From: Candidatus Eiseniibacteriota bacterium
GTDB taxonomy: Bacteria; Arandabacterota; Arandabacteria; JAGLYR01
Length of the DNA: 7,120 bases
Assembly (NCBI GenBank): GCA_023132135.1
Contig: JAGLYR010000173.1
Coordinates: 1-7,120 of the forward strand
Direction of reading: 5' to 3'
The position numbers were made by a program, and so were the translations under genes. The notes under the pieces are model-generated. The model did no database searches. It saw nothing but the letters and a program-made list of their open reading frames with translations, and was not told where the DNA came from. This document shows, one piece after another, positions 1 through 7,120 of this stretch (within the stretch, counting starts at the first letter, position 1; each line of letters starts with the position of its first letter).

Positions 1-39
1 CGCAACGCAGTCCAGGCACATCCTGAGAACCTCGCAGCA

Positions 40-63
40 GGGATTCATGAATAATCCAGGCTA
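40..63 (-). repeat. Dispersed repeat R1, inverted copy at the end of the glycosyltransferase gene
   Basis: Read on the minus strand, this stretch starts TAGCCTGGATTATTCATGAA and continues to CCC. It differs from the R1 copies at 6675-6699 and 6888-6912 by two or three bases. Its core ATTCATGAAT is a perfect palindrome; the other copies have ATTCAGGAAT. The first three bases (TAG) are the stop codon of the glycosyltransferase gene. A weaker match (GCAGC with a one-base insertion) continues to about position 34. The element is in inverted orientation relative to the two right-hand copies. Confidence 0.7.
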
Positions 64-2166
64 GCCTCGGATTTCCGCCAGGCGGGCACTGGCTTGCGAC
101 CGTATTTCCTCATTCTGTGCGGCCCCTGCCAATGTCTCCAGTTCCCTGATCGCTCCCTTGAGATCTCCGGATTGCGCAAGGATTTCTCCCAGGTACAACC
201 GCGCAGTCTCATTGGTCCGGTCGAACCTGAGGGCCCGTCGCAGGAGGTCAAGGGCCTCCTCCAACCGCCCCTCCCGGGCAATGGACATGGCAATCTCGGC
301 CTGGGCCACACTCATCTGCTCGGGATGGACATCGGACATCTCCAGGATGCGCCGGTACCACTCGACAGCCAGCGCACTCCTTCCCGTGCTCCGGTAAACA
401 TATGCCAGGTTCAGACCGGCCAGTCCGTACCCGGGATCTACCTCCAGAGCCGTTGCAAGCTCTTCCTCCGCACGATGCAGCTCGTTTCGAATAATGAAGT
501 AGACCCCAAGATCATTGTGCACGGTCGCGTTGAGAGAGGGTTCCAGCGCAGTGGCGCGCCCGTAGGATTCCATCGCCTGGTCGTAGAGTCCCTTGGCAAG
601 GTATGCGGATCCCATGGACAGGTAAGTCTTGGCATCGTTGGGATCAATGCGGAGCACCTGCCGGAAGGTGTCGATGGCGCGGTCATACAGTCCCTGGTCC
701 ATGTACGCGCTGGCCTGGTTGAAGAGGTGAACGGGCACATCCTGGTCCCGGCTGATCCCCATGGCCCGCGTGTTTGCAAACCAGCAGAACACAGCGACAC
801 CCAGAACCAGTGCAGTGAGCTGTCGCCAGTTTCTTTGCCGCAGGGCCCGGGCCATCGATACCACCGCGAGCGCCGAGAGGACGGCCAGTGCCATGGCCGC
901 CGGCATCCGGAAACGCTCGCAGACGAAAAAGGCCACGACCGCCACCATCTGGGCGACGACGAAAAGGGCAATGAGCCTGGAGGCTCTTCCCCGCCGGAGA
1001 GACAGCGCAAGTCCCACAAGCCCAAGCGGTCCGATCAGCCAGAACCCCGGGTGGGGAAAACCCAGCGACCGGCTGTTCGCGCGCAGGAAGGCGCCGATGT
1101 CCCGGTTGTTGCCGATCTCGTAGCTGTTCCAGAAGTAGTAGAGCTTCCGAACCTGGAGGTGAGCCCAGTCCCCGGGATGTCGGGCCATGAATCGAAGAGC
1201 CTGCTTCGACCAGAAACCGGAGACTTCGGAAGGCTTGAATTCTCTACCTGTCATTTTCTCGGCCGCCGCCTTCGCGCCGAGGTAGACTGTGTCCCGCGTC
1301 TTTCCCACCGAGCGCAGGAGATCGGCATCTTTCACACCCGGCCCGCGTGCGGTCTTGCCGTCCGACTGAGGATTGTTCCCGATGTAGTAGTTCACGCCTC
1401 CCTGGTGAGCAATGAACACGAACTCGCCGCTGGCATGGTAGTTGATGATGGTCACGGGGACGACCCACACGGCGATTCCAACGGCCACGGCCGCAGCCCG
1501 GCCCCAGCCTGAACGCCAGGACCCCCAACCCTTGGCCCACAGAAGCGACAGGATTCCGAAGATCAGAATCGTGGGGCGCACAATCGCCGAGAGTCCCAGG
1601 GCAAACCCCGCCAGCAGCCAGGAGCGCCATCCTCCTTTCTCCTCCGCACGTACCAGGAGAACCAGGGACAGAAGCGACGTGAGGACCACCAGCGCAGTGC
1701 CCAGGATTTCGGCGGAAAAGTAGATGAACACACCATAGGTAGCGGCCAGCATGCCGCCAATCCAGCCGACCCAGCGCCCATATACCTTCCAGCCAAGTGT
1801 CAGAACAAGTCCTGCGGCCAGGGAACCCAGGATAATCTGCACCACGCGCGCCACCATCAGACTGTTCCCCGACAATCGATGGATGGCCGCCAGCAAGTAC
1901 GGAAACCCCGGCGCCCGGAACAGGGCCTCGCGCGGCATCCAACCCTCCGCGGCAATTCTCATGGCCTCGACGTGATACCACTGCGCGTCCAGAACGATGC
2001 TGTTGAAATCCGGGGACGAATGCACTTCGGCCAGGTAGATCAGGCGAGCTGCCAGAGCGACGACGAAGATAACCAGGAAGGCAAAGGGGAAAGAGGCCGC
2101 CATCCGGCTTGCGTGACTGCCGCGGCGGACAGAAAACCCGGAATCGGCGCTCTCGTCAGGCAACAT
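61..2166 (-). CDS. GT39/PMT-like membrane glycosyltransferase with C-terminal TPR domain
   Basis: Predicted integral membrane glycosyltransferase of the GT39/ArnT-like (PMT_2) type, 701 aa from the chosen start. Such enzymes transfer sugar from a polyprenyl-phosphate donor outside the cytoplasmic membrane. The first membrane span (about residues 22-45) is followed by LDAQWYH with candidate catalytic Asp60, then FRAPGFP (83-89), some ten further hydrophobic segments, an extracytoplasmic loop with GGVNYYIGNN (256-265), and ERFRMP (417-422). Residues about 480-701 form roughly six TPR repeats, for example NQASAYMDQGLYDRAIDTF, which usually bind proteins or extend complexes. Start choice: GGAGG at 2179-2183 directly abuts an ATG at 2178, too close to serve it, and lies 12 bases before the ATG at 2166. 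The frame stays open upstream to 2301, but that part is repeat DNA. The acceptor substrate is unknown. Family call is solid; start is uncertain by a few codons. Confidence 0.85.
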   Translation of the reverse strand: MLPDESADSGFSVRRGSHASRMAASFPFAFLVIFVVALAARLIYLAEVHSSPDFNSIVLDAQWYHVEAMRIAAEGWMPREALFRAPGFPYLLAAIHRLSGNSLMVARVVQIILGSLAAGLVLTLGWKVYGRWVGWIGGMLAATYGVFIYFSAEILGTALVVLTSLLSLVLLVRAEEKGGWRSWLLAGFALGLSAIVRPTILIFGILSLLWAKGWGSWRSGWGRAAAVAVGIAVWVVPVTIINYHASGEFVFIAHQGGVNYYIGNNPQSDGKTARGPGVKDADLLRSVGKTRDTVYLGAKAAAEKMTGREFKPSEVSGFWSKQALRFMARHPGDWAHLQVRKLYYFWNSYEIGNNRDIGAFLRANSRSLGFPHPGFWLIGPLGLVGLALSLRRGRASRLIALFVVAQMVAVVAFFVCERFRMPAAMALAVLSALAVVSMARALRQRNWRQLTALVLGVAVFCWFANTRAMGISRDQDVPVHLFNQASAYMDQGLYDRAIDTFRQVLRIDPNDAKTYLSMGSAYLAKGLYDQAMESYGRATALEPSLNATVHNDLGVYFIIRNELHRAEEELATALEVDPGYGLAGLNLAYVYRSTGRSALAVEWYRRILEMSDVHPEQMSVAQAEIAMSIAREGRLEEALDLLRRALRFDRTNETARLYLGEILAQSGDLKGAIRELETLAGAAQNEEIRSQASARLAEIRG

Positions 2167-2183
2167 TGAGGCTTTCATCCTCC

Positions 2184-2290
2184 GGAGAAGGGTATCAGGA
2201 CAAGTGCAGGACAAGTGCCCCGTGCTTCGTGCCCCGTGCTTTGTGCTAAGGAGAAGGGCATCAGGACAAGTGCCACATGCTTCGTGCAAG
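2184..2290. repeat. R2 tandem repeat block in the glycosyltransferase leader
   Basis: On the + strand a 24-base unit beginning GGAGAAGGG occurs at 2184-2207 and again at 2250-2273 with one mismatch. Between them the 11-mer AGGACAAGTGC is exactly duplicated (2197-2207, 2208-2218), and a 14-base unit TGCCCCGTGCTTCG repeats in tandem (2216-2229, 2230-2243) with a decayed third version at 2271-2284. A single related copy is found upstream of mnmA at 6528-6559. The block is in the 5' leader of the glycosyltransferase gene. Its frame on the minus strand happens to be open, which could lead a gene caller to add 41-45 false residues to that protein. Confidence 0.8.
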
Positions 2291-2306
2291 GAAAACTGCA
2301 TGGTGG

Positions 2307-2327
2307 GGGCGACCCGGTGGGTCGCCC
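2307..2327. other. Perfect 9-bp stem, 3-base loop hairpin
   Basis: GGGCGACCC (2307-2315), loop GGT, GGGTCGCCC (2319-2327). It lies between the phosphodiesterase stop and the glycosyltransferase start. No T run directly follows on either strand; on the minus strand the first TTTT is about 12 bases further on. It may slow or end transcription, mark a processing site, or be a short palindromic repeat of the REP kind. It is not a textbook intrinsic terminator. Confidence 0.6.
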
Positions 2328-2341
2328 GGTTGCCTTTCGCG

Positions 2342-2374
2342 CCCTCGCCCTCTCGCTCCCTCTCGCCCTCGCCC
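2342..2374 (-). other. Canonical G-quadruplex motif in the transcribed strand
   Basis: The minus strand has five GGG runs (complementary to CCC at 2342-2344, 2348-2350, 2358-2360, 2366-2368 and 2372-2374) separated by 3, 7, 5 and 3 bases. This meets the usual G3N1-7 rule with one run to spare. It begins 11 bases after the phosphodiesterase stop codon, so the mRNA itself would carry the G-rich strand. It sits in a purine-rich, GAGGGCGA-like low-complexity tract, so it may be a by-product of simple-sequence DNA. Folding and any role are inferred. Confidence 0.55.
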
Positions 2375-2385
2375 TTTCGCTGTGT

Positions 2386-3939
2386 TTACTGAAGGTAGGG
2401 GACTGAACCCAGCGCGCGGCGACGTTCTTCCAGAGACTCTTGCCCCTCGGGTTCTTTCCGGACCAGGGCAACAGGCTCCGCAAAACGGATCTCGTGCCTG
2501 GCCAGACAGGCCGGATCGATAGCTTCGACGAACACTCCACCATCCATGTCGGCCGGCAGTCGCTCCCCCAGTAGATACAGGATGGTGGGGGTGACCCCTT
2601 CGATTCCCTGCGGCGTGAGGTTGATACCCTTCCGGACAGGGCCTCCCGAGAGAATGATGACGCCCTCGCGGCGATGGTACGCGCTGAAACTGTAGGACGG
2701 AAGTCCGAACAGCGGGGCTCCCGCGTTTCCCTCCCCCCCGATCACGAAGTAATCGGGTTTCACCGTGAACAGGATGTCCGGCCCCTGGTCCATGTATGGT
2801 CCCGAGAAAACCTCCTCGCCGAAACGGATATCCGTAACCGGGCGAATGCCCGTCTCCGGGTCGGTCAGTTCCCTGAGTTGCCGCGCAATCCGCTCCCGCA
2901 CCTGCCGGTACTGCCGCCCCTGCTGCACCTCACCCCGGGGTTCCCTCCCGCGGACGTTCAGATAGATCCGTCCGCCGAAATCGCCCTGGTAGTAGGCCAG
3001 AACCTTTCCCCTCTCCCAGTCGAAAAATCCCTCCCGGGCCAACCAGTTCTTGAGACGGATTTCGCGGTAGATTGGAGAGAAGCCGTGATCGGACATCACA
3101 ATCACAACTGTGTCGTCGTCCACTCGCTCAAGAAGCTCGCCCACCACCCGGTCCACCCTCTGCCAGAAATCATGGATGGCGCCCCCGAACGTCTTGGCTT
3201 TGTCCTCATCGTAGAAAGGGTGCTCTGGATCGAGGAATCGCCAGAAGAAGTGCTGTGTTTTGTCTGGACCTGTGAAGACGACCCAGAACAGATCCCACTC
3301 TTCATCCTCCATCAGCTCCAGGGCCACCCGGGCCCGGGCCTCGAGGTTGTGGACCAGCCTGTCCCTGAGCGCCGCCTCCTGTCCGTCCACCAGAACTTCC
3401 CCAAAGGCATCCAGCTCGTAGTCGCCAAGTCGGGACTGCAGCTCCGGCGGATAGGTGTATCCCTTGTCATCGAAATGGGGAAACCCGGCGATCATGAACC
3501 CGTCGACCTCATCGGGCGGGTCGGTGAGAGGTACATTGATGATACCAACGCTGCGGCCCCGGCGGGCAAGCGTCTCCCAAATGGCTTCTGCCTTCCTGTC
3601 ACGGGACGTGGCGGGAATCGTCGTGGCAGAGCCCGATGGCCGGATCCAGAAATCGTAGATTCCATGTTTCCCGGGATTCTTGCCCGTAACAGCGGACGTC
3701 CACGCGGGCGGCGACATGGGTGGGAAAACGGATTCAAGAGTCCCTGCAGCGCCTCCCTCGACAAGTCGCTCCAGATTGGGGAGGTCCCCTGCCTCAATCC
3801 AGGGATCCAGCAGATCCCAGGTTGCCCCGTCGAGTCCAATCACCAACACCTTCGAAGCAGGGGGCGAGGACCCGCAGCCCGTGAGGCCAGGGAGCAGCAC
3901 GATGGTCAGCAACCACAGGCAGAGGTTACGCGGGTGCAT
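2386..3939 (-). CDS. Lipoprotein of the type I phosphodiesterase/alkaline phosphatase superfamily
   Basis: A 517-aa exported lipoprotein. The signal peptide ends in a lipobox LTGC (Leu19 to Cys22), so it should be acylated and membrane-anchored. The rest is a type I phosphodiesterase/nucleotide pyrophosphatase-like domain: VIGLDGATW (metal ligand Asp37), PPMSPPAWTS with probable nucleophile Ser76, TGKNPGKHGIYDF (85-97), GPDKTQH (Asp226, His230), MSDHGF (Asp284, His285) and AYHRREGVIILSGG (His422). These match the two-metal site of the superfamily, so it is probably active. Members hydrolyse or transfer phosphodiesters and phosphomonoesters; the substrate here is not evident. The ATG is preceded by AAGGAG (3949-3954, spacing 9) and AGGAGG (3942-3947, spacing 2). 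It starts six bases after the beta-helix gene stop, so translation is probably coupled. The glycosyltransferase downstream suggests a glycan-linked phosphate substrate, which is inference. Confidence 0.9.
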   Translation of the reverse strand: MHPRNLCLWLLTIVLLPGLTGCGSSPPASKVLVIGLDGATWDLLDPWIEAGDLPNLERLVEGGAAGTLESVFPPMSPPAWTSAVTGKNPGKHGIYDFWIRPSGSATTIPATSRDRKAEAIWETLARRGRSVGIINVPLTDPPDEVDGFMIAGFPHFDDKGYTYPPELQSRLGDYELDAFGEVLVDGQEAALRDRLVHNLEARARVALELMEDEEWDLFWVVFTGPDKTQHFFWRFLDPEHPFYDEDKAKTFGGAIHDFWQRVDRVVGELLERVDDDTVVIVMSDHGFSPIYREIRLKNWLAREGFFDWERGKVLAYYQGDFGGRIYLNVRGREPRGEVQQGRQYRQVRERIARQLRELTDPETGIRPVTDIRFGEEVFSGPYMDQGPDILFTVKPDYFVIGGEGNAGAPLFGLPSYSFSAYHRREGVIILSGGPVRKGINLTPQGIEGVTPTILYLLGERLPADMDGGVFVEAIDPACLARHEIRFAEPVALVRKEPEGQESLEERRRALGSVPYLQ

Positions 3940-3941
3940 GA

Positions 3942-3954
3942 CCTCCTACTCCTT
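3942..3954 (-). promoter_or_regulatory. Double Shine-Dalgarno overlapping the upstream stop codon
   Basis: AAGGAG (3949-3954) and AGGAGG (3942-3947) lie within the last codons and stop codon (TAG, 3946-3948) of the beta-helix gene and serve the phosphodiesterase ATG at 3939. The farther one has good spacing (9 bases); the nearer is too close to work alone. The overlap indicates translational coupling and supports co-transcription of the two genes. Confidence 0.75.
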
Positions 3955-4818
3955 AGGACAGGACAGGATTTTCCTCGAATGTTCCTTGTCCACCCAGGGT
4001 TTGAAGTCCAGCGCACCCATGAACTTGGCACGGTCAGGGCAATCGGATCCCCAGTAGTTGTACTCACAGGACAGGAGCCCCGGCGAGCTGGTCCGGATCC
4101 CCTCTTCCTTGACCTTCACCAGATTCTGCAGGTTGTACCCGTGGTTGTCGAAAATATCGTTGGCCCCTTCGATGGATCCGCCAATCGTCGGCACCGCGTA
4201 GTCCTCAACAACAATCCCGATCTTGTTGAGATCGATGGTGTTGTTCCGAAGACGGGGAGAGCCATCCTTGATCACAATCCCCTTGGTGTTGTCCGTCACA
4301 TGATTCCGGACAACCAGAGGACTGCATCGGAGACAGTGAATCCCCTGCTTGTTGAGCCGCACGAGGTTGTTCCGGATTGTGGGGGATGAACCCTCGCAGT
4401 CAATGCCGAACCATCCCCTTTCCACCACATTGTCCAGGACCCTTGGCGCTCCTCCTCCCGAACAGTACACCACACGATCCGCCGCGCGGCCGCCGGCAAG
4501 GGTGAACCCGATCACGGCGGTAACCGTATCGGCATCGGCCAGTCGGACTACCCACCACCGGTACCCAACGATGGTGGTAACCTCAGGACCGTCCGCGCTC
4601 CTGAGGACAACCCCGTTCTTGATATCCACGGGGCCTTCGTATCTCCCGGGGCCAACGATAATCGTATCTCCCCGGCGAGCCTCCCGCATAGCGTCCTGGA
4701 TTCTCTGGAAGTCCTCGGGAACCTTGAGCGTTGTCCCCTCTGCGAATCCCACCCAGCTTCCAAACACCAGGACAGCGAGACCCACCGCCAGGATCCTGTT
4801 CGTCATGATCCACCGCAA
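3946..4818 (-). CDS. Secreted right-handed beta-helix repeat protein
   Basis: About 290 aa, with an N-terminal signal peptide (hydrophobic run ILAVGLAVLVFGSWVGFA, cleavage after about residue 26) and then the entry motif of beta-helix/DUF1565-type proteins, VPEDFQRIQDAM...GDTIIVGPGRYEG. Short PbH1-like rungs follow (about residues 120-215; for example SPTIRNNLVRLNKQGIH and SPRLRNNTIDLNKIGIV). The tail has NYWG (254-257) and FKPW (272-275), a capping pattern common in secreted beta-helix proteins. Relatives include NosD-like and carbohydrate-binding or lyase proteins; I see no catalytic signature, so the function is unassigned. Start: TTG at 4818 has a perfect AAGGAGG ten bases upstream; ATG at 4806 gives the cleaner signal peptide but sits 22 bases from that site. 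A longer frame to 4896 runs into the arginine tRNA and is false. It is the first gene of the envelope cluster. Confidence 0.85.
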   Translation of the reverse strand: MRWIMTNRILAVGLAVLVFGSWVGFAEGTTLKVPEDFQRIQDAMREARRGDTIIVGPGRYEGPVDIKNGVVLRSADGPEVTTIVGYRWWVVRLADADTVTAVIGFTLAGGRAADRVVYCSGGGAPRVLDNVVERGWFGIDCEGSSPTIRNNLVRLNKQGIHCLRCSPLVVRNHVTDNTKGIVIKDGSPRLRNNTIDLNKIGIVVEDYAVPTIGGSIEGANDIFDNHGYNLQNLVKVKEEGIRTSSPGLLSCEYNYWGSDCPDRAKFMGALDFKPWVDKEHSRKILSCPKE

Positions 4819-4828
4819 GTTTCTCAAA

Positions 4829-4835
4829 CCTCCTT
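4829..4835 (-). promoter_or_regulatory. Shine-Dalgarno AAGGAGG for the beta-helix gene
   Basis: AAGGAGG on the minus strand, ten bases before TTG at 4818 and 22 bases before ATG at 4806. It is the only strong ribosome site between the tRNA and the gene and therefore favours the TTG start. A weaker GGTGG lies three bases before the ATG at 4806. Confidence 0.6.
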
Positions 4836-4866
4836 CGCTGTTCTTCCTTGAATGAGACATAAAATC

Positions 4867-4943
4867 TGGCGCGCCCAGGAGGATTTGAACCCCCAACCCC
4901 CTGATCCGTAGTCAGGTACTCTATCCAATTGAGCTATGGGCGC
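4867..4943 (-). tRNA. tRNA-Arg(ACG)
   Basis: Full cloverleaf on the minus strand: acceptor GCGCCCA pairs with TGGGCGC, discriminator G, and encoded CCA (4867-4869). Anticodon stem CCTGA/TCAGG encloses loop CTACGGA, giving anticodon ACG (reads CGT, CGC and CGA once A34 is deaminated to inosine). The T arm is GGGGG/CCTCC around TTCAAAT with one G-T pair. Length is 77 bases. It lies 48 bases upstream of the beta-helix gene with no terminator visible between them. Confidence 0.95.
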
Positions 4944-5061
4944 GCGTCAGAAGGTTGAACACCCAACCCTTGATTTCGTTCCCACTAACCAGCGGCGGCT
5001 GCACTGCCGCAATCGTCGGAGCCAAGAGCGTGATGTCCGCACCGACTTCCGACCGCTGGTG

Positions 5062-5105
5062 AAAAATGCCGACTATGGCCGGGCGGGGAACCCGCCCGGC
5101 CATAG
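5062..5105 (-). terminator. Probable intrinsic terminator of the serine tRNA unit
   Basis: A perfect 15-bp stem (5073-5087 with 5091-5105, arm CTATGGCCGGGCGGG) and a 3-base loop. On the minus strand it is followed, after six bases (TCGGCA), by five T residues (5062-5066). It starts eight bases after the 3' end of tRNA-Ser(GCT). Only the minus strand has the T run. The offset of the T run is unusual, so a plain palindromic repeat or a processing signal remains possible. Confidence 0.65.
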
Positions 5106-5113
5106 CCAGAGTC

Positions 5114-5205
<92 letters not shown>

Positions 5206-5223
5206 GTTCCGGTTGTTTCGTCG

Positions 5224-5309
5224 TGGCGGAGGGAGTAGGATTCGAACCCACGGACCTTTCGGTCAACGGTTTTCAAGACCGCCGCCTTCGACCACTCGGC
5301 CATCCCTCC
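5224..5309 (-). tRNA. tRNA-Ser(TGA)
   Basis: Class II tRNA on the minus strand: acceptor GGAGGGA/TCCCTCC, discriminator G and encoded CCA (5224-5226). Anticodon stem GCGGT/ACCGT encloses loop CTTGAAA, giving anticodon TGA (UCN codons, mainly UCA). The variable arm GACCGAAAGGTC forms a short hairpin as expected for serine. Length 86 bases. It is the first gene after the promoter at 5341-5368. Confidence 0.95.
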
Positions 5310-5340
5310 GCGGAATCTCCTACACCCACCCCGTCACTGG

Positions 5341-5368
5341 ATTATGCATGAGCCCGGAGACCTGTCAA
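5341..5368 (-). promoter_or_regulatory. Sigma-70-like promoter for the serine tRNAs
   Basis: On the minus strand a perfect -35 box TTGACA (5363-5368), a 16-base spacer, and CATAAT (5341-5346), five of six to the -10 consensus. It sits about 31 bases upstream of the mature 5' end of tRNA-Ser(TGA), a usual distance for a tRNA leader, in the 119-base gap after mnmA. No other match of this quality was found in the window. Confidence 0.7.
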
Positions 5369-5428
5369 GCCCTTCCAAGCCGCACCAGCGCCGCAGCAGA
5401 CGGTTCGTGAGCAGAGGCGACGGCGATT

Positions 5429-6505
5429 CTACTGAATGATCCCACCGCCCAGTACTTCATCGTCCCTGTAGAAAACCACGGATTGTCCAGGCGTGATGGC
5501 GCGCTGGGATTGCTCAAACCTGACCACTACATCCTCACCGGCAAACTCAATCAGCGCCGGGGAAGGATCATGCTGGTAGCGGATCTTTGCTGAGACCGCC
5601 GTCGTTGACGAAATCGCTTCAACAGAGATGAGATTCACGTCCTGCGCGACCAGGGTCTGCGCGCAGAGGTCTTCGTTGTCGCCCACGATCACGGAGTGGT
5701 CGGCGGGGTCGATCCGAATCACGTACTGCGGCCGGCCCACGGCCACTCCCAAACCTCGGCGCTGGCCAACGGTGTACCGGTAGAACCCCCGGTGTTTCCC
5801 AAGAACCCGCCCCGATGTGTCGAGAATCAAGCCTTCGCCCTCGCCGTCCGCTACCTGCGATTCCAGCCAGGACACATAGTCCCCCCGCGGGACAAAACAC
5901 ACATCCTGGCTCTCCGGCGTCCGACCCACGGGGAGCTCCCGGGCCCGGATCTCCGCCCGGACTTCATCCTTCGTCATCCCCCCCAAGGGGAACACGACGG
6001 ACCGGAGCTGGTCCTGGGAAAGCCGCCACATGAAGTAGGACTGGTCCTTTACAGGATCGACCCCTCTCAGGAGAAGCGTCCGCCTCCGGTCCTCATCCCA
6101 CGCGCTCCGGACGTAGTGCCCGGTCGCAAGAACGTCACATCCCAGCGACCGGACCTTCTCCAGCAGGAACCCGAACTTGATCCTGGCATTGCACTGGACA
6201 CACGGGTTGGGGGTCCGTCCATTCAGATAGGCATCACGGAAAGGCTGAACCACATTGTCCCGGAACTCCGACTCAGCATCGATCACAAGATGGGAGATTC
6301 CCAGTGCATGGGCCACCCGCCTCGCCCGGGTCACGGAAGAGACAGCGCAACGGGGTTTTTCCGAATCTTTCTCTGACTCGGACCGGACGCTCGGCAGCTT
6401 GAGCGTGACGCCGACAACTTCGTGTCCTTGCTCAACAAGCAAAGCCGCGGCGAGCGAGCTGTCCATACCACCGCTCATCGCCACGGCCACTGTTTTCCTG
6501 TTCAT
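5429..6505 (-). CDS. mnmA: tRNA-specific 2-thiouridylase MnmA
   Basis: A 358-aa cytoplasmic enzyme that adenylates and thiolates U34 of the Lys, Glu and Gln tRNAs (s2U34), taking sulfur from a relay protein. Seen: PP-loop SGGMDSS (residues 11-17) for ATP; RTPNPCVQCN with catalytic Cys102; GHY (129-131); DQSYFMW (154-160); FPLGG (172-176); ESQDVCF with the second catalytic Cys203, which forms the persulfide; then HRGFYRYTVGQRRGLG and a complete C-terminal beta-barrel. Cys102 and Cys203 match E. coli Cys102 and Cys199. Length is normal. At the usual DAR position before RVA the protein reads TRAR, a small departure. The ribosome site is weak (GGTGA, four bases before ATG). The leader carries an R2 repeat and (CA)5. 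The flanking Ser and Arg tRNAs are not MnmA substrates, so the closeness is probably incidental. Confidence 0.97.
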   Translation of the reverse strand: MNRKTVAVAMSGGMDSSLAAALLVEQGHEVVGVTLKLPSVRSESEKDSEKPRCAVSSVTRARRVAHALGISHLVIDAESEFRDNVVQPFRDAYLNGRTPNPCVQCNARIKFGFLLEKVRSLGCDVLATGHYVRSAWDEDRRRTLLLRGVDPVKDQSYFMWRLSQDQLRSVVFPLGGMTKDEVRAEIRARELPVGRTPESQDVCFVPRGDYVSWLESQVADGEGEGLILDTSGRVLGKHRGFYRYTVGQRRGLGVAVGRPQYVIRIDPADHSVIVGDNEDLCAQTLVAQDVNLISVEAISSTTAVSAKIRYQHDPSPALIEFAGEDVVVRFEQSQRAITPGQSVVFYRDDEVLGGGIIQ

Positions 6506-6527
6506 TGCTCACCAGTTCACACACACA

Positions 6528-6559
6528 GGGAAGAGGACATCAAGACCCGTGCTTCGTGC
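6528..6559 (-). repeat. R2 repeat, single copy in the mnmA leader
   Basis: On the minus strand it starts GCACGAAGCACGGG, identical over 14 bases to the complement of 2219-2232, and goes on TCTTGATGTCC and CTTCCC, which resembles TCCTGATACCC/CTTCTCC in the glycosyltransferase leader; the copy there has about seven extra bases in the middle. It ends 22 bases before the mnmA ATG, in the same orientation relative to its gene as the other R2 block. A (CA)5 run (6518-6527, + strand) separates it from the start. Confidence 0.65.
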
Positions 6560-6576
6560 GCGGAGCTATCACGCCC

Positions 6577-6602
6577 GTCGTTCCCGCGTGCGCGGGAATG
6601 AC
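6577..6602. repeat. Palindromic repeat of the TTCCCGCG...CGCGGGAA type
   Basis: Twelve-base arms around TG: GTCGTTCCCGCG (6577-6588) and CGCGGGAATGAC (6591-6602), complementary except for one G-T pair. Short palindromes of this TTCCCGC/GCGGGAA style are widespread intergenic repeats in many bacteria (compare the Neisseria dRS3 type). No T run follows, so it is not called a terminator. It is a single copy in this window. Confidence 0.65.
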
Positions 6603-6670
6603 AATCGGCTTGGGGGACAGAGCGGCAACGTCCTCCCCCTGTCGCGGCCTCTCGCACTCGCCACGTCGCC

Positions 6671-6746
6671 GTTGTAGCCTTGGTTATTCAGGAATCCCGC
6701 TGCTCCCGGCCCTGAGCTCATCAGAGTACAGCCCCGTTTAGCCTGC
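6671..6746 (+). repeat. R1 repeat, short copy
   Basis: Two blocks shared with 6884-7017: a 29-base left block (6671-6699, one mismatch; starts GTTGTAGCCT) and a 35-base right block (6712-6746, five mismatches, all transitions; ends CCCGTTTAGCCTGC). The 58-base difference in length is between the blocks, so this looks like an internally deleted version of the longer copy. No open frame of merit overlaps it. Confidence 0.8.
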
Positions 6747-6778
6747 AGAATTCTCCCTATTTCCTTGACACTCGACAC

Positions 6779-6839
6779 CTGTCACTCGCCCTTGTCACAC
6801 GGAGGGGCGCTGGCCCCAACCCAGTGACAGGGTGACAAG
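6779..6839. other. Double TGTCAC/GTGACA inverted repeat with central hairpin
   Basis: TGTCAC occurs at 6780-6785 and 6793-6798; GTGACA at 6824-6829 and 6832-6837. They can pair as nested arms around a 5-bp hairpin (GGGGC 6804-6808, GCCCC 6813-6817). Alternatively they pair in crossed fashion with 8 bp each: CTGTCACT (6779-6786) with AGTGACAG (6823-6830), and CTTGTCAC (6791-6798) with GTGACAAG (6832-6839). It sits between the two R1 copies. It could be a repeat element, a protein-binding array or a folded transcript. Confidence 0.5.
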
Positions 6840-6883
6840 CGACTGGGATTGGGGAATACTGCGCTCTCCATTCAATCACCGGG

Positions 6884-7017
6884 GTTGTAGCCTGGGTTAT
6901 TCAGGAATCCCGTAGCGAGAGGGACGCAGGCTGTGACTGGCAAGGCGCGGGGTCGATTTCGACCCTCCCCCTGGTGTCGACTCTGAGCTTGTCAGAGCAT
7001 AGTCCCGTTTAGCCTGC
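6884..7017 (+). repeat. R1 repeat, long copy
   Basis: Shares its 29-base left block (6884-6912) and 35-base right block (6983-7017) with the short copy at 6671-6746. The middle carries extra paired segments: GGGTCGA/TCGACCC (6950-6956, 6959-6965) and CTCTGA/TCAGAG (6981-6986, 6992-6997), enclosed by ACGCAGGCT (6924-6932) with AGCCTGCGT (7011-7019). A decayed further version of the left block, TAGCCTGCGTTTCTCA ending in CGTAGCGAGGGAC, runs on to about 7047. There is no coding potential. Confidence 0.75.
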
Positions 7018-7093
7018 GTTTCTCACCAGGTTTCGTAGCGAGGGACCGGGCCATGTGGCGAGAGGGGTCTTTGGACTGAGTCGCTCCCGAAGG

Positions 7094-7109
7094 CGTAGCC
7101 GTGGCTACG
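7094..7109. repeat. Short palindrome at the window edge
   Basis: CGTAGCC (7094-7100), GT, GGCTACG (7103-7109). Outer bases CGCT (7082-7085) and AGCG (7117-7120) are also complementary, so a larger imperfect palindrome probably continues past the window end. It belongs to the same repeat-filled spacer as R1. Confidence 0.5.
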
Positions 7110-7120
7110 TTGAGGAAGCG

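What the first reader, a model, noticed from the sequence alone, without database searches (positions are those of the whole stretch)
40..7017. R1: a dispersed repeat with three copies, one supplying a gene's stop codon
The core TAGCCTGGGTTATTCAGG occurs at 6675-6692 (one mismatch) and 6888-6905, and in inverted form at 40-63 (two mismatches in the corresponding 18 bases). In the inverted copy the first TAG is the stop codon of the glycosyltransferase gene. The element has a palindromic ATTCNNGAAT centre. Three copies in 7 kb, on both sides of a gene block and in opposite orientations, suggest a high-copy genomic element, possibly a non-autonomous mobile repeat. An inverted pair could also support inversion of the intervening segment. 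I do not recognise a named family.
Basis: partly seen in the sequence, partly recalled or inferred. Interest (0 to 1): 0.6.

Follow-up and report, generated by a model that had tools for sequence, protein, structure and literature searches.

The report
Transposon scraps parked at stop codons
The repeat is the end of a 181-letter hairpin-shaped piece of mobile DNA, present in many dozens of copies in this uncultured bacterium's genome, that often lands in the stop codons of genes without harming them because its own first letters rebuild the stop.

Summary
The R1 core is the terminal inverted repeat (TIR) of a high-copy element, here called E: 162 TIR matches in the 3.4-Mb source genome, none of the reversed control pattern. 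E is an imperfect 181-bp palindrome (intact 180-182 bp; many tip-deleted versions of 50-68 bp).

A sister family F starts at window 7010 (190 matches), and a homologous family Z, also 181-182 bp, occurs in another genus of the class (102 matches). E, F and Z share conserved internal motifs. Their TIRs match those flanking IS1380-family transposase genes, so they are best read as IS1380-type MITEs.

F and Z insert at YTAR sites, apparently duplicating TA. A TAA or TAG stop after a pyrimidine is such a site, and the element's first G restores TAG. About 60% of E and F right ends lie within 10 bp of a gene stop, against 18% of viable YTAR sites. Genes checked keep full length.

Not shown: mobility itself, why E and F point one way, or why most E copies lack a recoverable target site. 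No close strain was available for an empty-site test. Nothing supports an invertible segment.

The parts
1..63 (-). Right half of an E element, cut by the contig end; TIR at 40-63
   Evidence: TIR matched genome-wide; interior matches right arms of full E copies
61..63 (-). First TAG of the E right TIR, which is the stop codon of ORF 61-2301
61..2301 (-). Membrane glycosyltransferase (PMT_2) with C-terminal TPRs, ending at the element
6675..6698 (+). Truncated E left end (1 mismatch)
6699..6738 (+). Repeat module N, a copy of the module at 6965-7009
   Evidence: 79% identical pair 6695-6746 / 6966-7017; further copies after F left ends
6739..6887 (+). Probable third element (H): left end TAGCCTGCAGAATTC.., decayed right end ..CTCTCCATTCAATCACCGGGGTTG; boundaries tentative
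   Evidence: modules shared with other loci in constant order
6888..6964 (+). Left half of an E element, from TIR to the start of the hairpin apex
   Evidence: 6884-6964 is 100% identical to the genome-derived E query
6965..7009 (+). Repeat module N
7010..7120 (+). F element, left arm and apex, cut by the contig end
   Evidence: TIR exact at 7010-7030; matches full-length F copies

Best explanation
R1 is the terminal inverted repeat of a non-autonomous IS1380-type transposon (MITE), family E, one of several sister families (E and F here, Z in another genus) that share a 181-182-bp imperfectly palindromic body. An IS1380-family transposase acting in trans is inferred to mobilise them. They insert into YTAR tetranucleotides and appear to duplicate TA (inferred from junctions of F, Z and a few simple E copies). 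A TAA or TAG stop codon preceded by a pyrimidine is itself a YTAR site, and the element begins with G, so insertion there turns the stop into TAG and leaves the protein intact. Such insertions are tolerated and accumulate at gene ends; the enrichment exceeds the neutral YTAR expectation, so some further bias is likely. Most E copies also carry repetitive sequence outside the left end and do not restore a YTAR site, which is tentatively explained by transfer of adjacent DNA (one-ended transposition, reported for IS1380-family elements).
For: High copy with control 0. Paired ends and constant 180-182 bp in E, F and Z with shared internal blocks. TIR match to IS1380 genes: G038, where the pattern occurs only twice in the genome and brackets an IS1380 gene; G102; L119, an inverted pair with a TTAG repeat; the source genome's own IS1380 ends one mismatch from the F pattern. 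Junctions: YTAR in 15/18 Z and 9/9 F pairs against 7-9% of NTAN; native stop restored in 11/12 Z and 4/4 F. Stops: E right ends 43/73 and F right ends 15/25 within 10 bp of a stop, against an 18% YTAR null; exact TAG in 41 of 60 coding flanks. Full-length proteins. IS1380-family modules carrying adjacent genomic DNA of various lengths are described in Paracoccus (PMC3281130).
Against: Only 3/19 E pairs give YTAR and 6/15 restore a stop, so the simple model does not fit E itself well. E and F right ends face genes far more often than left ends, which a YTAR target does not predict; Z lacks this bias. No autonomous element with E-type ends was found in the source genome. IS1247, an IS1380 element, makes 5-bp repeats (PMC3281130), not 2. 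The gene sample was chosen around repeats, gene calls are home-made, and copies are not independent, so p-values are optimistic.
Confidence: 0.72

Rival explanations
1. The elements are kept at gene ends by selection, as 3'-UTR hairpins that terminate transcription or stabilise mRNA, whatever their mobile origin.
For: Exact placement after stop codons and one-way orientation; convergent intergenes over-represented among those with E, 18 of 41 against 18 of 105; very stable fold, -115 kcal/mol, z -12.7; internal blocks conserved across E, F and Z.
Against: No T-run follows the hairpin at the loci read; strongly tip-deleted copies persist; the hairpin is nearly the same in either orientation, so RNA function does not explain the bias; placement follows partly from a YTAR target.
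Confidence: 0.12
2. A transposase of another family with a TA or YTAR target (IS630/Tc1-like, or the IS427 group of IS5) mobilises them.
For: Apparent 2-bp TA duplication; IS427-group elements make 2-bp repeats (PMC3281130 Table 2).
Against: No IS630 DDE_3 match in the genome; the only DDE_Tnp_1 genes are the IS1380 copy and one gene with no E- or F-like ends nearby; TIRs match IS1380 genes in several genomes.
Confidence: 0.08
3. REP/BIME-type palindromes moved by a RAYT (Y1) transposase.
For: High-copy palindromes downstream of coding regions, as described for REPs (PMC3733652).
Against: 181 bp rather than 20-40 bp; no constant GTAG tag at right ends; only a short Y1_Tnp fragment in the genome.
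Confidence: 0.03
4. Integron attC-like recombination sites at cassette ends.
For: Imperfect palindrome at the 3' end of genes, one-way orientation, conserved ends and variable apex.
Against: Ends TAGCCTG/CAGGCTA do not fit the RYYYAAC/GTTRRRY cores (consensus from memory); sites are dispersed beside housekeeping genes such as dnaK, purH, PFOR and NAD kinase; TIRs match IS1380.
Confidence: 0.02

Closest known systems
IS1380 family insertion sequences (including ISEcp1, IS1247)
   Same: Terminal inverted repeats alike in G038, G102, L119 and the source genome's own copy; movement of adjacent DNA of various lengths is reported for the family (PMC3281130)
   Different: No transposase gene, 181 bp, apparent TA rather than 4-5-bp duplication, concentration at stop codons
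Bacterial MITEs
   Same: Short, non-coding, inverted repeats, high copy, inferred trans mobilisation
   Different: Constant 181-182 bp and conserved apex across families and genera; insertion that rebuilds stop codons
REP/BIME elements (GTAG and CGTC REPs; PMC3733652)
   Same: Palindromes mostly downstream of coding regions
   Different: Much longer, no GTAG tag at right ends, no intact RAYT found
piggyBac transposons
   Same: Four-base target containing TA; IS1380 transposases serve as outgroup in piggyBac trees (PMC10813416)
   Different: TTAA rather than YTAR; not compared by sequence here

Membership tests
IS1380-type MITE | TIRs shared with an autonomous IS1380-family element | tested here: met
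   F matches the resident IS1380, E matches IS1380 elements of other genomes only
IS1380-type MITE | Short, defined ends, no transposase gene | tested here: met
   180-182 bp paired-end copies
IS1380-type MITE | Target-site duplication of the family (4-5 bp) | tested here: inconclusive
   F and Z fit YTAR with TA duplicated; E mostly does not; a 4-bp TTAG repeat was seen at the full IS1380 in L119
IS1380-type MITE | Movement by an IS1380 transposase | not testable with these tools
   needs a transposition assay or strain comparison
REP/BIME (RAYT-linked) | 20-40-bp palindrome with a GTAG or CGTC tag | tested here: not met
   181 bp; base before TAG at right ends is mixed
REP/BIME (RAYT-linked) | Associated RAYT (Y1) transposase | tested here: not met
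   one short Y1_Tnp fragment only, in a draft assembly
Integron attC site | RYYYAAC and GTTRRRY cores | tested here: not met
   ends read directly from full copies; consensus from memory
Integron attC site | Integron integrase in the genome | not tested
   not searched
Intrinsic terminator | Hairpin followed by a T-run | tested here: not met
   by reading 15 loci in gene sense; no transcript data

The most novel reading that the evidence does not exclude
A class-wide lineage of constant-length, structured 181-bp elements is actively directed to gene 3' ends (by transcription, translation stop or a transposase preference) rather than merely tolerated there, and may act as a portable 3' UTR.
Probability: 0.15. 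Interest if true: 0.8.

Novelty: new variant of a known kind. Interest (0 to 1): 0.55.

Why it matters
It shows a simple route by which mobile DNA can fill a compact genome without breaking genes: a target sequence that contains stop codons plus an element end that rebuilds the stop. It also explains the stacked repeats after genes in this genome and probably much of its fragmented assembly, and it gives a testable case of whether such insertion is neutral or directed.

Tried and rejected
Exact 24-mer in GTDB r220 contigs: 0 stretches, with the source genome possibly left out. Same 24-mer in 59 other held genomes: none; a looser IS1380-type TIR pattern then found family Z in G006. IS630 transposase: none. 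Y1/RAYT: fragment only. A plain 4-bp direct repeat across E: absent. Rfam on the window and on a full-length E: only tRNAs in the window, nothing on E. Naming the host from MnmA: best 50% identity to an Armatimonadota MAG, so not assigned. Literature searches found no report of MITEs seated at stop codons, in an open-access library only. Inversion of the segment between 63 and 6675: rejected because the copies are halves of elements found at many loci.

Full report
Check of the observation. In the source genome the core has 83 places at up to 2 mismatches, the 24-mer 133 and the 21-mer 162 at up to 3; the reversed control has 0 each time. So the repeat is real and high-copy.

Anatomy. Paired ends define element E: intact copies of 180-182 bp, one of 224 bp with a different apex, and a series of tip-deleted palindromes of 50-68 bp, down to about 21 bp. 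The two ends differ slightly: left TAGCCTGGGTTATTCAGGAATCCCG.., right TAGCCTGGATTATTCATGAATCCCTGCTGCGAG... A full copy folds at -115 kcal/mol, z -12.7. The window holds parts only: 1-63, 6675-6698 and 6888-6964. From 7010 it holds a second family, F (190 matches), also 181-182 bp. The window is one whole contig, and both of its ends lie inside these repeats.

Relation to IS1380. IS1380-family genes (PF13701) in unrelated held genomes carry matching ends. In G038 the pattern occurs only twice in the genome, inverted, around an IS1380 gene. In G102 it lies just upstream of an IS1380 N-terminus. L119 has an inverted pair with a TTAG repeat. The source genome's only IS1380 (C139) ends in TAGCCCGCATTTCTCACCAC, one mismatch from the F pattern, with an interior unlike F; its left end was not found. 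No IS630 transposase was found, and the one other DDE_Tnp_1 gene has no E- or F-like ends nearby. An IS1380 transposase acting in trans is therefore the best inference, not a demonstration.

A third family and the insertion site. G006, another genus of the class, has 102 ends of family Z, again 181-182 bp. Removing an element and one TA from the junction gives YTAR in 15/18 Z and 9/9 F pairs, against 7-9% of NTAN in the sampled sequence. For genes ending at the element the reconstructed site is a stop in 11/12 Z and 4/4 F cases. In L317 and L325 one element supplies the stops of two convergent genes. E behaves differently: 3/19 YTAR and 6/15 stops restored.

Stop codons. With simple gene calls, 43 of 73 E right ends lie within 10 bp of a gene stop, against 1 of 35 left ends. 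F gives 15 of 25 and 0 of 11. In 41 of 60 coding flanks the stop is exactly the element's TAG; in 8 it lies 16-17 bases into the TIR. The viable-site null (stop-codon YTAR over stop plus non-coding YTAR) is 18% here and 19% in G006; p is about 1e-14 for E right ends, 4e-6 for F right ends and 0.02 for Z pairs, but 0.12 for F pairs. These tests treat copies as independent and use contigs chosen around repeats, and right ends were singled out after the bias was seen, so the p-values are optimistic. Proteins checked are full length by comparison with solved structures: PFOR aligns to residue 853 of 855, NAD kinase to 323 of 328, and PyrF to within a few residues of the end.

Stacks. Left ends of E and F abut a small set of repeat modules in a constant order. 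The module called M3 was found only beside E or E remnants, with variable outer limits. This suggests that E often moves with neighbouring DNA, as reported for IS1380-family modules in Paracoccus (PMC3281130); layered insertion at the same stop is the alternative. The one-way orientation of E and F is not explained; Z lacks it.

Shared design. Aligned E, F and Z copies keep invariant blocks outside the TIRs, such as CTGCTRCG, TCCTC, CTCGC and an apical stem with compensatory changes. Near-palindromes covary by nature, so this supports common ancestry more than an RNA function. Rfam has no match.

Verdict. An IS1380-type MITE group whose target sequence and first base make stop codons safe landing sites. 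Shown: copies, lengths, ends, junction statistics, stop placement. Inferred: transposase, TA duplication, neutrality. Open: orientation, the E junctions, mobility. The host lineage was not named.

Noticed in passing
window 4867-5309: Minus-strand tRNA cluster: Arg(acg), Ser(gct), Ser(tga).
   Followed up: no
source genome, contig ends; window 1-63 and 7010-7120: Many contigs end inside E or F elements, often near the hairpin centre, so the 345-contig assembly is probably broken largely by these repeats.
   Followed up: partly
L017 (C122:6575-6798): An E copy of 224 bp whose apex is replaced by a different palindromic repeat.
   Followed up: no
L148-L154: E remnants reduced to TAGCCTG or a 21-bp core beside intact module M3, the end of a hairpin-tip deletion series.
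   Followed up: partly
L097 / L265 (C139): The genome's single IS1380 gene lies directly beside an IS3-type transposase pair, and no left TIR was found.
   Followed up: partly
G062 loci L289-L313: A genome outside the class has 14 ends like TAACCTGGATTATTCATAAA, possibly another IS1380-type repeat family.
   Followed up: no
window 2184-2290 and 6529-6567: Other short degenerate intergenic repeats (GGAGAAGGGCATCAGGACAAGTGC, CCCGTGCTTCGTGC).
   Followed up: no
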